Positions 2,191 to 8,100 of a stretch of DNA of 37,774 nt are shown piece by piece. Made by a program: the position numbers and the translations under genes. The stretch is from Tubiluchus corallicola. Lineage: Eukaryota; Priapulida; Priapulimorpha; Priapulimorphida; Tubiluchidae. The DNA is taken from the NCBI GenBank assembly GCA_030141605.1, contig JAQGDQ010001500.1, positions 1 to 37,774 of the forward strand, written 5' to 3'. The notes beneath the pieces were generated by a model that was not told the origin of the DNA, made no database searches, and worked only from the letters and a program-made list of their open reading frames with translations. The first letter of the stretch is position 1, and each line of letters begins with the position of its first letter.

Positions 2191-5100
2191 CTAAAACAAG
2201 TTTGTTACTTCGTTAATTTTTTGAAATCATCAGTTAAAATGAACAGAGGAAAGAACATTAGATATGCCTGACAAGTTTTTATACATAGAAGGACAGCATT
2301 AGTTTCTCAGCAAAGCAGAGCAATAAAGCAAAGATCAAGCAAAGGCCAAGCAAAGGTCAAGCAAAGGTCAAACAAAGGTCAATGTAGTGAAAGGCCTAGA
2401 TTGATTTAAAGAATACGGGATGACTTTTCATACACTCTCCTATTTTCAAGTCCGACAAAAAGTACACACTTTAACACGATTAATACAAAAGCATTTCTGA
2501 TAATTACATAATGGATTAAAAACTTAATTAACGGCAGGCGAGCCCAACTATTGATGACATCAGAAACTAACATAATTTTCAACACCAAAAATATTCCACG
2601 AGCGTGTTGCATGTGTTTGCGAAAGCGAAAATTGAAGTACAGTGCTAATGTAAGATATTCAGTGTGTAGCACTAAAACTAGGCAAGTTTTACGATAAAAC
2701 ATCAAATTTCAAATTTGTTGCTGTGCTCACGCATGAGGTGCCGAATGCGTGCAGTTCGTCACAAACTAACACATCTGAACTGAAAGGTACAGCACCTGTT
2801 TTTTGTGCAACGCTTTCCGAAATGCAGGCGCTAGTGCCCGTCTAACTAGAGAATGGCGAAATGCATCTAACAGCGAAGAACTAGTGGCACGAACGTGAAA
2901 TTGCCTTTGTGTGGCAATAATTCTTTACATCAACAAAAGCTATAGCTAACCTTTGTCCGTTCAGTTGGCTGTAACAGGAATTTTCCGGTAATGGAAAGTT
3001 TCTGGTCGTCGTTTTCGTGCTCTGTCAACATCTCCTGGAAAATACGGGCAAATTGAATTGCAAAATTAACACAATCCCGAGCTTTACGCAGGCAAGGCCC
3101 GACTTAGATTTAAAATTCTTTCATCATATTCGAATGCAAGTACTTATGCACTGTATTATCCGGGCCAGTTATAGGCAGTGTTATTCCCGGAAATTAATTC
3201 TTTAAGAGTATCCTTTGTGGTAGTTACCATTTACTTCAAGAATCTACATCAGGGGTGTGCAAATTACGGCCTACGGGCCACTTGCGGCCCACCGAGAGAA
3301 TTTGTGTGGGCCCGCAAAGACATTTGTCAACCTAATGAAAGTGCGGCCTGGGCGATTAATTGAGTGTATCCAGCTGAAGCCCGTGTCACGATCCCAAAGA
3401 TAGTTCGGGTAGTTTTTTCTACTAGATCGGATGCCATTAACCCTTACAAGACGGTTGTAGCTTAATACCACTGTACTACACAGACTGTGTGATTCACATT
3501 ACTAATATGCATTGTAATGAAATTACCACTATCTGTCCTGAAAGTGGAAATATATGGTTTGTAATATAAATTTTAATAACTTCTAAAATAGTTTCTTAAG
3601 TGTAGTAGTAATGATGTACGCAGGTCGGATGCAAAAAAATTGTTATTAGGCCTTTCTGTACTTGGCGCCTTGATCAAACTGCCTGTGGCCCGCAGGAATT
3701 GCGGGAAAGTTTAATGTGGCCCGGCTAGTCAGACAATTTGCACACCCCTGGTTTACATTGTACTATTGACAATTTAAAGTGAAAGAAAAATGATTTTAAA
3801 GTCCCAAGAAACTTTCCATACAAAGTTAAAATACTTAGCGTTATGCTTAAATGATTGAAAGATTTATGTAACAACCTTTTCACAGTTTCGCTACGTGCAC
3901 GCGTAGCTGCTGCAGGTCAAAGGTTAAGTGTACCACAGCAACGCATCTCAAGTACGACCGTAACCAACATGTGGGTAAAACAAAGCCGTCTGCTGCATGA
4001 GCTCAGTAGCTTCAGTTGTTCTACGTGGACTTTACTTAATTATGCATTAGTCTGTGCATAGAGTGATTTACTAGCAGGATCTTGCTTGGGAACAAGAAAA
4101 AATGAACTAGGCAAGGTTCTAGCTGTTAAAACTGTTACTATTACAACAGCATGGGCTGCGAGGCGTTGTCAAGTGTACGCAAATGCCTTGTCTGGTACAC
4201 TTAACCTTTGACCTTTTCACGATCGTCATCAATCGATGGAACTGCGAAAAAGCTTATTGAAAAAGAAAACTCTTCATGTGATGTTTGTGCAAACTGCTAA
4301 AACATCATTGCATTGCAATCCCAGTGTGCACCACTGGATCACCAAAAAACGCATTACTGACTTTAGCGCTCAATATAAAGCTACTTACGCTTTCGCCCAG
4401 TTTTATTTTGATCATCTTTTCAAACTTCAAACAACGCTATCAAACTTTCATTCAACTTCTTACACTCACTGGTCATCCGTTAAAACGGCTGGCTTGATGA
4501 TCGCGGTGGAAAGTTAAAATTTACAAATTTTACACAGTGTTAATGCTAACAAGAGTCCTGCATGTTACGAAACTTCTTGATAAAGCCACAGCCATATGGT
4601 TGCCACAACATCAATACCCAAAATGTCACAAATTAGCAACGCCCAAAATTTGTTGTGGCATTTATGAAATGGACAAAATGCATGCGTACCTCGACATCTG
4701 TGAGCAGAGCTTGCGGGTCGGTTAAGTCTTTAGGAATGCCGTGCTTGTTGTAAGACAGTTGCCGTAGCCACTCCACCATCACGGCAAGTCCGTTCAGCTC
4801 CCAGTGAGTCATGTGCTGATACGGTGGCCTCACAACTGCAAGGATAAGGTAGCTTCATTAGCACATGGTGGCCTCGCAACTGCAAGGATAAGCTAGCTTC
4901 ATTAGCACATTTTGACCTCACAACTGCAAGGATAAGCTAGTTTCATTAGCATACGGTGGCCTCACAACTGCAAGGATAAGCTAGCTCCATTAGCACATGG
5001 TGGCCTCACAACTGCAAGGATAAGCTAGTTTCATTAGCACATGGTGGCCTCACAACTGCAAGGATAAGCTAGTTTCATTAGCACATGGTGGCCTCACAAC

Positions 5101-8100
5101 TGCAAGGATAAGCTAGTTTCATTAGCACATGGTGGCCTTGTAACTGCAAGGATAAGCCAGTTTCATTAGCACATGGTGGCCTCGCAACTGCAAGGATAAG
5201 CTAGCTTCATTAGCACATGATGACCTCACAACTGCAAGGATAAGCTAGTTTCATTAGCATACGGTGGCCTCACAACTGCAAGGATAAGCCAGTTTCATTA
5301 GCACATGGTGGCCTCGCAACTGCAAGGATAAGCTAGTTTCATTAGCACATGGTGGCCTCGCAACTGCAAGGATAAGCTAGTTTCATTAGCACATGGTGGC
5401 CTCGCAACTGCAAGGATAAGCTAGTTTCATTAGCACATGGTGGCCTCACAACTGCAAGGATAAGCTAGTTTCATTAGCATATGGTGGCCTCACAACTGCA
5501 AGGATAAGCTAGTTTCATTAGCACATGGTGGCCTCGCAACTGCAAGGATAAGCTAGTTTCATTAGCACATGGTGGCCTCACAACTGCAAGAATAAGCTAG
5601 TTTCATTAGCATACGGTGGCCTCACAACTGCAAGGATAAGCTAGTTTCATTAGCACATGGTGGCCTCACAACTGCAAGGATAAGCTAGTTTCATTAGCAC
5701 ATGGTGGCCTCACAACTGCAAGAATAAGCTAGTTTCATTAGCATACGGTGGCCTCACAACTGCAAGGATAAGCTAGTTTCATTAGCACATGGTGGCCTCA
5801 CAACTGCAAGAATAAGCTAGTTTCATTAGCATACGGTGGCCTCACAACTGCAAGGATAAGCTAGTTTCATTAGCACATGGTGGCCTCGCAACTGCAAGGA
5901 TAAGCTAGTTTAATTAGCATGTGCTAAAAACTCAAAGAATGCACTTAGAACTGCTGCTTACAACTTATGATACATGGAAGTACTTAAGGAGAACAGATAT
6001 GAGTTAGGGTGTCCTTGGTGATCCAAGTTAGTACTGTCCGGCCTGGTTAATGAATGGATGGATGGATGGTTGCTGGGATTAGTACTCCTTCTGGGACGTT
6101 TTATCTCCAAAAATGTCCATACCTGTTTACCTTGTGAGTAAGTAAATATAAACAAGCAAACAGCAAAATTAAGAAGAGGTTTCTTCTTTTTTTGGATAAA
6201 TAATGCAGTATAATTTTACTATAACTACAAATGTATTAGAAAACTTGACAAAGTAAATCAATACTGGAAATTTTAATAATAAATACTCAAAATGAAAATA
6301 ATAAAATTATAACATTATAATAGTAGTTATTAATTATTAATAATATTAATATTATTAACATTATTAATAATAATAATAATAATAATAATAATAATAATAA
6401 TAATAATAATAATAATAATAATAATAATAATAATAATAATAATAATAATAATAATAATAATAATAATAATAATTATAACGATAATAATGCAAACTGGCAC
6501 ATGTTTCACTCTAGGACTGCAACTTTCTGGGCCCGGTGATACTGACCACAAAAAATGTCTTATCAAGGGGTAGGGCTCTTCTTCATTCTTTACTCCACCT
6601 CAACTTAATATTGTAACCTTGCTGCAAATTTGTTAGCCAGGTTTGATTACATTACTTCCTGTTTCTCTCTAACATTGCGACATCTTAAAGCGATACGTTA
6701 TATCATTTTCTACAAATTTTTACAAGAAAAATCAATCACACCAAAAGACAATGAGTAAACAGAACTACCTTTGCTTTCCCTGTTGGCACTCAGGTCTTGT
6801 TTGCCGTCGACGAGGGCGCGCGGTGACCGTGCCGGACTCGTCGTGTAACCGTGCTCACTCGAGATTCCGTTTGCTGGAGAGTGGGGGGGACTGCCGGGCA
6901 CAATGAGACTCGATGGGGATTTTGGAGCATGTGGTTCTCCGCAAGCGTTGCGATCCTAAAAAAGAAGCCAAGACTTTAACCCGATAAAAACTGTCTAATC
7001 GAAGCCAAATAAACCAGTGGTTCTTAACCTGGGTTCGATCGAACCCTAGGTGTTCGGTGCGTCAATCTCAGGGGTTCGGCAGAGACTTTTTTATACCATT
7101 TGTTACAACATATCTTTGTGAGCAATCCCTTTCGAGGATGCTGGACATAAAAACGAAGAAAAGGAACAGACTTTGCTGTGAAAATGACATGAGAGTGGCA
7201 CTTGCCAAGGTGAAGCCACGCATATCTGAACTGGTCTCTCAAAGGCAACAGCAGAAGTCACACTGATTTGCAGGTATGTAATTTGTTGTGAGTTTATGCA
7301 TTGTGTTGGTTTTGTTCTTTGAACAAGGTGATGTTCATGCACGGCTCATTTTGTGTACCAGTAAAAAACATATCTATGTCTTGAATTTGAAAAAAATCAC
7401 ATTTTATTTTTCACTAAAGAGGGGTTCGGTGAATGCACATATGAAACTGGTGGGTTTCGGTACCTCCAACAAGGTTAAGAACCACTGAAATAAAATATGT
7501 TTAAACTAATGAAACACCGACATAATGACGCATAAACAGACGACATCGTGGAATGAACGTAAACAAATCTTTTATCACGAAATCGAAAATTTCTTAATAA
7601 AAACCATCTCAGATGGTAACACGATCGTTAATATCAAATCGGAAAAGTCAACGAGTTACCTCGCCAGATTCTATTCTTTCTGGTTTCTTGAGATACGTTT
7701 TGCCAGTCAAACAGCATAGGTAACGATCTAGCACATACCAACACATCTCGCTGTAGAACGGGTACCTGAATTTCATTGGCACCTGTAATTTACAATCACG
7801 TACGATTGATTAAAAAAAACTAGTCGGAAAAATTCAGCAGAAAAAGAAATCTCATACTGTGTATGCATGCATGAAGGTAACAAACAGTAGATTAAAGGAA
7901 AAGGATAGCTTTTTGGGAAGTTAGGCTGATTTCAAGGTTTGCGAAAAGTGTTGGCAGGATTTAGTAATAGAAGTGCGACGAGCAAAATCACTTTAAAGTC
8001 GCGAGCATTTAACTTTTGGTTGCTCCCATTTTGAACACCCATTCTCCTCCCACCAGCGAAGAGAAGCAGAGCACTGTCAATTTCCGTCAAAACTGTAACA

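What the first reader, a model, noticed from the sequence alone, without database searches (positions are those of the whole stretch)
4821..5917. A minisatellite made of about 25 copies of a gene's own 3' splice site
On the transcribed strand each 44-bp unit holds a branch-point-like CTAAT, a pyrimidine tract ending CTTATCCTTGCAG, and the first 13 or so bases of the KDM2 exon (TTGTGAGGCCACC). The last unit is the true acceptor, so the intron offers some 25 near-identical acceptors in a row. Using any earlier AG adds 44 nt per unit. From the first extra unit the frame reaches TGA (TTG TGA GG) at the next junction unless that unit has the TTGCGAGG variant. Decoy use would thus mostly yield truncated or NMD-prone transcripts. 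Copy number could tune KDM2 output before the CXXC exon, or select for skipping to the last AG. The sequence facts are seen; the regulatory idea is inference.
Basis: partly seen in the sequence, partly recalled or inferred. Interest (0 to 1): 0.85.

Follow-up and report, generated by a model that had tools for sequence, protein, structure and literature searches.

The report
Splice-acceptor minisatellite in an animal KDM2
In an invertebrate's KDM2 gene, a short stretch covering the place where an exon begins has been copied in tandem 25 times, leaving 24 decoy exon starts that would all wreck the message; this is a striking new example of a kind of repeat already described in lancelets, probably tolerated rather than used as a switch.

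Summary
The array is real: 25 units of exactly 44 bp (4819-5918, minus strand), each with CTAAT, a pyrimidine tract, CAG and the start of a KDM2 exon. The last AG (G at 4836) is the only one of 25 that avoids a premature stop; 24 of 24 decoys truncate. Exon overlap is 17 bp in the last unit and five decoys. An 8-bp direct repeat, AGCACATG, lies flush at both edges, pointing to a local tandem duplication across the splice site. Such repeats are known as "mirages" in amphioxus Adh3, troponin C and globin genes, reported not to disturb regular splicing (PMC3087553, PMC3902484; passages read). The host is very probably not Branchiostoma. Six minisatellites lie in this gene region, so one array edge touching a splice site is unsurprising (P 0.36). 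Best reading: a mirage, tolerated because the exon-proximal acceptor wins. Hints of function are weak: decoy splice signals vary less than the rest (rotation P 1/44, lost under another definition), and each junction is a 16-nt wobble palindrome that could pair decoys. Boundary repeats in human genes can alter splicing (PMC2812944). No transcripts were available.

The parts
4819..5918 (-). 25 x 44-bp array; each unit = 27 intronic bases (GCTAAT...CTTGCAG) + 17 bases that in the last unit are exonic
   Evidence: TRF, units in register
4837..5918 (-). 24 decoy acceptors (G of AG at 4880 to 5892, every 44 bp) plus the intronic part of the last unit
4836..4837 (-). inferred true acceptor AG of the last unit; the only unit with CTACC where the others have CTAG (22) or CTGG (2)
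   Evidence: frame and homology; unit table; score
4857..4861 (-). branch-point-like CTAAT of the last unit, about 22 nt before the AG
   Evidence: sequence; role inferred
4690..4835 (-). KDM2 exon B (146 nt), VRPPYQHMTHWELNGL..., donor GAG|GTACGC
6769..6955 (-). preceding KDM2 exon A (187 nt), ends in phase 1, donor AAG|GTAGTT
   Evidence: frame continuity
2951..3034 (-). following KDM2 exon C (84 nt)
1966..2190 (-). KDM2 CXXC exon D (225 nt)
   Evidence: end read; the script stopped one base short
5918..5925 (-). AGCACATG at the 5' edge of the array (intron side; its last base is the first base of the first unit)
4810..4817 (-). AGCACATG at the 3' edge of the array (inside exon B)
4828..4843 (-). 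CCTTGCAG|TTGTGAGG, a 16-nt palindrome at RNA level if G-U pairs count, centred on the junction; near-identical in the other units
   Evidence: unit variants

Best explanation
A tandem duplication spanning the 3' splice site of KDM2 exon B (27 intronic + 17 exonic bases) was seeded near an 8-bp direct repeat. It then grew by ordinary minisatellite turnover into 25 units, in a gene region that holds several such arrays. The exon body fixes the 3' edge, because the array cannot pass it without breaking the frame. The exon-proximal acceptor is the one used: it has the intact exon and the nearby 5' splice site behind it (exon definition) and scores best of the 25, though only slightly. Leaky use of decoys ends in premature stops. 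Shown: array, gene, frame consequences, edge repeat, precedent. Inferred: which AG is used, exon definition, NMD, near-neutrality.
For: Exact 44-bp register with 17 exon bases shared. AGCACATG flush at both edges; a match of 8 or more anywhere between two random flanks of that size from the window occurs in 0.49% of 20,000 draws. The two-unit block beginning at 5848 is identical to those at 5760 and 5628. Exon-proximal units differ more from the consensus (last 11 mean 2.18, first 14 mean 1.14; split chosen afterwards; trend P 0.064, so weak). The last acceptor scores 7.45, the 24 others 5.81-7.30, on a matrix recalled by me. It is the only AG without a premature stop. Six minisatellites (period 37-91) lie between 1.2 and 18.3 kb; placed at random, at least one edge falls within 17 bp of one of 20 splice sites in 36% of 20,000 trials (the 17 bp was set by the case itself; the 5-bp-unit repeats at 8428-8925 were left out). 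Published amphioxus mirages are reported not to disturb splicing. The start of exon B is poorly conserved among 48 other KDM2 proteins, chosen by me from 225 fetched, so the overlap touches lightly constrained codons.
Against: No transcript was seen. The score advantage of the last AG is small and the whole set is middling (105th of 2057 AGs on that strand). The last unit still has an AG (GAAG) between CTAAT and the acceptor, while two decoys have none. Decoy splice signals vary less than the rest of the unit (1 of 18 against 13 of 26 columns), which plain neutrality does not predict. A first-come rule would favour the 5'-most acceptor. In human genes, minisatellites at exon-intron boundaries can generate alternative splicing (PMC2812944), and the globin authors allow that mirage copies could serve as cryptic sites.
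Confidence: 0.75

Rival explanations
1. Copy-number rheostat: decoys compete for U2/U2AF, a share of transcripts takes a decoy, gains a premature stop and decays, so array length sets KDM2 output.
For: 24 of 24 decoys truncate. CTAAT and CTTGCAG are intact in 25 of 25 units. Signal columns vary less (hypergeometric P 0.0017; lowest of 44 rotations, i.e. 1/44). Human boundary minisatellites can alter splicing (PMC2812944).
Against: No RNA or allele data. With the usual 23-base acceptor window (columns 7-29) the contrast vanishes, 6 of 23 against 8 of 21 variable (counted by hand). Adh and troponin C mirages are said not to generate aberrant mRNAs.
Confidence: 0.1
2. Array as acceptor booster: 25 clustered branch-point/pyrimidine modules raise local U2AF/U2 binding and help a middling acceptor, with the last AG chosen by exon definition.
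For: The true acceptor is mid-range among the ten acceptors I assigned to the gene (7.5; range 1.6-12.6). Signal columns conserved under one definition.
Against: No measured effect. Four of those ten acceptors (6.1, 6.3, 4.7, 1.6) score below the commonest decoy score of 6.78 and have no such acceptor array. Same definition problem as above.
Confidence: 0.06
3. The repeat came from elsewhere (mobile element or satellite) and replaced the old acceptor, so the exon start is repeat-derived.
For: Exon B's first residues are variable among KDM2 proteins, so replacement would be tolerated. Copies elsewhere in the genome could not be checked (genome search did not complete).
Against: Continuity of acceptor and reading frame and a local direct repeat at both edges; TRF lists no other period-44 array in the window.
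Confidence: 0.05
4. Alternative acceptors make protein isoforms.
For: Spacing is regular; 8 of the 24 decoy inserts, including the full 24 x 44, are multiples of 3.
Against: 24 of 24 decoys hit a stop, these 8 included.
Confidence: 0.02

Closest known systems
Amphioxus 'mirage' minisatellites (Adh3, globins BflGb6/BflGb9, troponin C); similar repeats in lancelet PGBD5
   Same: Tandem repeats that span an exon-intron boundary and copy the splice signal; at BflGb6 the 3' end of an intron plus the 5' part of the exon. Many copies keep AG/GT. Regular splicing is reported for Adh3 and globin (RT-PCR) and stated for troponin C; for PGBD5 it is only suggested by its authors.
   Different: Here 25 units of 44 bp (BflGb6 6 or 3 units of 150-160 bp; PGBD5 2 or 7 of 60 bp and 3 or 6 of 108 bp by assembly; Adh3 units 10-72 bp, copy number not seen). 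Other gene, and a host whose KDM2 is 56% identical over 51% of the query to the Branchiostoma record listed.
Internal tandem repeats at exon-intron boundaries of human genes in segmental duplications (PMC2812944, passages read)
   Same: Minisatellites, on average 30-bp units repeated 4 times, some at exon-intron boundaries.
   Different: There they generate alternative splicing or new introns, or are kept in transcripts; no such evidence for or against exists here.
Intron gain by tandem duplication across an intron-exon boundary, potato RdRp gene (PMC4974935, abstract read)
   Same: Duplicated segment crosses the same kind of boundary and carries branch site, tract and AG.
   Different: One duplication that made a new intron; here 24 extra copies and no evidence of a new intron.
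C. elegans CeRep25B intronic minisatellite (PMC4039745, passages read)
   Same: Near-palindromic minisatellite statistically linked to alternative splicing.
   Different: Lies in introns flanking alternative exons; the passages do not describe it as copies of a splice site.

Membership tests
Mirage minisatellite | Tandem repeats that span an exon-intron boundary of the gene, splice signal included | tested here: met
   27 intronic + 17 exonic bases per unit; last unit is the gene's inferred acceptor
Mirage minisatellite | Minisatellite turnover: homogenised interior, edge units left out | tested here: inconclusive
   identical two-unit blocks; exon-proximal units more divergent but trend P 0.064
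Mirage minisatellite | Regular mRNA despite the copies | not testable with these tools
   no RNA data for this host
Mirage minisatellite | Length polymorphism, somatic instability | not testable with these tools
   one haplotype only
Intron gain by tandem duplication | A new intron supported by transcripts | not testable with these tools
   units hold a donor-like GTT|GTGAGG scoring 4.5; use from one decoy to the last AG would add 2 nt and shift the frame (reasoned, not run)
NMD-coupled (poison) splicing switch | Alternative site introduces a premature stop upstream of further exon junctions | tested here: met
   24 of 24 decoys; stops lie 43-1155 nt before the B/C junction, with the C/D junction beyond
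NMD-coupled (poison) splicing switch | The alternative site is really used and regulated | not testable with these tools
   no RNA data

The most novel reading that the evidence does not exclude
A self-masking acceptor array. Each junction, CCUUGCAG|UUGUGAGG, is a 16-nt wobble palindrome centred exactly on the cut site, so any two copies can pair over both AGs (-17.8 kcal/mol). Decoys would hide one another, while the last copy, with a different sequence on its exon side, keeps a somewhat freer pyrimidine tract and branch point. Array length and parity would then set how well the true acceptor competes, and decoy signals would be kept because pairing needs them.
Probability: 0.06. Interest if true: 0.78.

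Novelty: new member of a known kind. Interest (0 to 1): 0.42.

Why it matters
It carries the mirage phenomenon to an animal that is very probably not a Branchiostoma, with more copies than the globin and PGBD5 cases in the passages read. It is a natural test of 3' splice-site choice: 25 near-identical branch-point/tract/AG modules in a row, differing mainly in position, with a readable outcome (a ladder of +44 nt) and a penalty for every error. It could show directly whether the first or the exon-nearest acceptor wins.

Tried and rejected
Rejected: the protein-isoform reading (24 of 24 decoys truncate). RNA structure as proof: a 261-nt piece has z -1.22, 26 of 200 shuffles folding at least as well, and six tiled units fold no better than tiled shuffled units (93 of 200 at least as stable). 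In one search the CAG of the last unit is predicted as paired as those of most decoys (0.06-0.10 unpaired over three span settings). Its tract (0.49) is freer than most, but six of 24 decoys reach 0.41 or more in at least one setting and two of them pass 0.49. Its CTAAT (0.60) is freer than most (about 0.35-0.59) but below decoy 4880 (0.76-0.91). A 16-nt wobble palindrome arises anywhere in a shuffled unit in 1.9% of 20,000 shuffles. Host placement: a KDM2 tree of 49 sequences (48 chosen from 225 fetched) puts it beside arthropods with support 0.27, while by distance a nemertean is nearest, so unresolved. Literature: ten full-text searches were answered; several listings were capped and none used KDM2 as a term, so I make no claim about what is in print on this gene. 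The 2002 Adh paper cited by PMC3087553 is not held, so it is known only through PMC3087553 and PMC3902484. The open-frame listing was cut by the tool.
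Full report
What is there. On the minus strand of the window, 4819-5918 holds 25 head-to-tail units of exactly 44 bp (TRF 4823-5919, 24.9 copies, 93%; 24 of 24 spacings equal 44). In register the consensus reads GCTAATGAAACTAGCTTATCCTTGCAG + TTGTGAGGCCACC(ATGT, or GTAT in some); 30 of 44 columns never vary. The last unit runs into an exon.

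Which gene. Exon A (6955-6769), exon B (4835-4690), exon C (3034-2951) and exon D (2190-1966) join in frame. B+C match the region of KDM2A after the JmjC domain (9phv, 2yu1); D is a CXXC finger whose best PDB match is KDM2B, then KDM2A. Further exons with KDM2-like sequence lie at about 19.4, 18.4, 14.1, 10.1, 9.1 and 7.8 kb (recognised by eye, confirmed as a set by the searches). The 120 best listed matches of the joined protein are KDM2-type proteins (of 1862 hits, of 3783 hits). The best full-length ones are about 49-50% identical (a nemertean, ticks, spiders); the Branchiostoma record is 56% over 51% of the query. A tree of 49 sequences leaves the host unresolved (support 0.27).

What decoy use would do. 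I joined A + array from each of the 24 decoys + B + C + D. All 24 give a premature stop: 17 TGA 47 nt after the A junction, 6 TAA at 107 nt, 1 TAA at 191 nt.

How it arose. The exon begins TTGTGAGGCCACCGTAT; six units (five decoys and the last) end in GTAT, so the duplicated segment took 17 exon bases. At both edges lies AGCACATG (5925-5918 and 4817-4810). A match of 8 or more bases between two random flanks of that size from the window occurs in 0.49% of 20,000 draws. The inner junctions, GTAT|GCTAAT, lack eight bases of a pure 8-mer-to-8-mer duplication, so either a second small deletion or a join at the shared AT is needed; this is inference. Identical two-unit blocks beginning at 5848, 5760 and 5628 show block copying.

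How unusual it is to hit a splice site. Six minisatellites (period 37-91) lie between 1.2 and 18.3 kb, in or beside the KDM2 exons found; the 5-bp-unit repeats at 8428-8925 were not counted. In 20,000 random placements at least one edge falls within 17 bp of one of 20 splice sites in 36%, at least two in 6.3% (the 17 bp was taken from the case itself). Observed: two. The second is the 45-bp array 17623-18262, which begins 4 bp from the last base of an exon (18266) and does not copy its donor. So the position needs no special cause, and the frame constraint explains why the array stops at the exon.

Which acceptor wins. On a recalled 3' splice-site matrix the last unit scores 7.45 and the decoys 5.81-7.30. 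The last alone has CTACC where the others have CTAG or CTGG; it still has an AG (GAAG) after CTAAT, and the two CTGG decoys have none. The whole set is middling beside the ten acceptors I assigned to the gene (1.6-12.6). Exon definition (established knowledge) favours the acceptor nearest the donor at 4690: exon 146 nt, against 1202 nt from the first decoy. A first-come rule would favour the other end. RNA must decide.

Signs of function, for and against. With a standard 23-base acceptor window the split is 6 of 23 against 8 of 21 (by hand). Each junction is a 16-nt wobble palindrome centred on the cut (duplex -17.8 kcal/mol; any-centre chance 1.9%). In folds of 1501 nt the CAG of most units, the last included, is over 80% paired; the last unit's tract and CTAAT are freer than those of most decoys, not all. 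Tiled shuffled units fold equally well (93 of 200), and a 261-nt piece is not unusually stable (z -1.22). I keep this as the bold reading, not the verdict.

What is known. [quoted passage not shown] its authors add that copies could act as cryptic sites. PMC3902484 (passages read) says Adh and troponin C mirages do not generate aberrant mRNAs, adds imperfect repeats in PGBD5, where it only suggests the same, and notes arrays that abut 5' splice sites, as the 45-bp array does here. PMC2812944 (passages) reports that boundary minisatellites in human genes can generate alternative splicing and new introns, which speaks against assuming neutrality. PMC4974935 (abstract) reports a potato intron born from such a duplication. 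The present array meets the structural definition of a mirage; regular splicing and length instability could not be tested. I file it as a new member of that kind in another animal lineage.

Limits. No transcripts, no second haplotype, no relatives with the array; the host's own genome could not be searched.

Noticed in passing
17623-18262 (minus strand), exon end 18266: A 45-bp, 14-copy array begins 4 bp from the last base of a KDM2 exon, touching its donor GTG|GTACAT without copying it; like the repeats said to abut 5' splice sites in lancelet PGBD5.
   Followed up: partly
23471-25831 (minus strand): A 57-bp array of about 42 copies carries a strong acceptor-like CCACTATTTCTACCCTGTAG|G in the consensus unit (score 9.5); I recognised no exon at either end, upstream of the KDM2 exons found.
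   Followed up: partly
4828-4843 and the matching place in each unit: CCTTGCAG|TTGTGAGG is self-complementary over 16 nt with G-U pairs, centred on the splice junction. By pairing rules the TTGCGAGG and TCTTGCAG variants keep every pair and the TTACAAGG unit (5144) breaks one; these variants were not run.
   Followed up: partly
34903-35218 and 37060-37773: Two arrays with similar 74-bp units lie about 1.8 kb apart, with a 138-bp duplication (36658-36937) between them.
   Followed up: no
window 1-37774: TRF lists 39 rows; the repeats I took for masking cover 9,749 of 37,774 bases, which is rich in minisatellites for a gene region.
   Followed up: no
26497-26964 (plus strand): A stop-free frame with a Cys/His-rich, PHD-like stretch, possibly part of a retroelement; recognised by eye only.
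   Followed up: no
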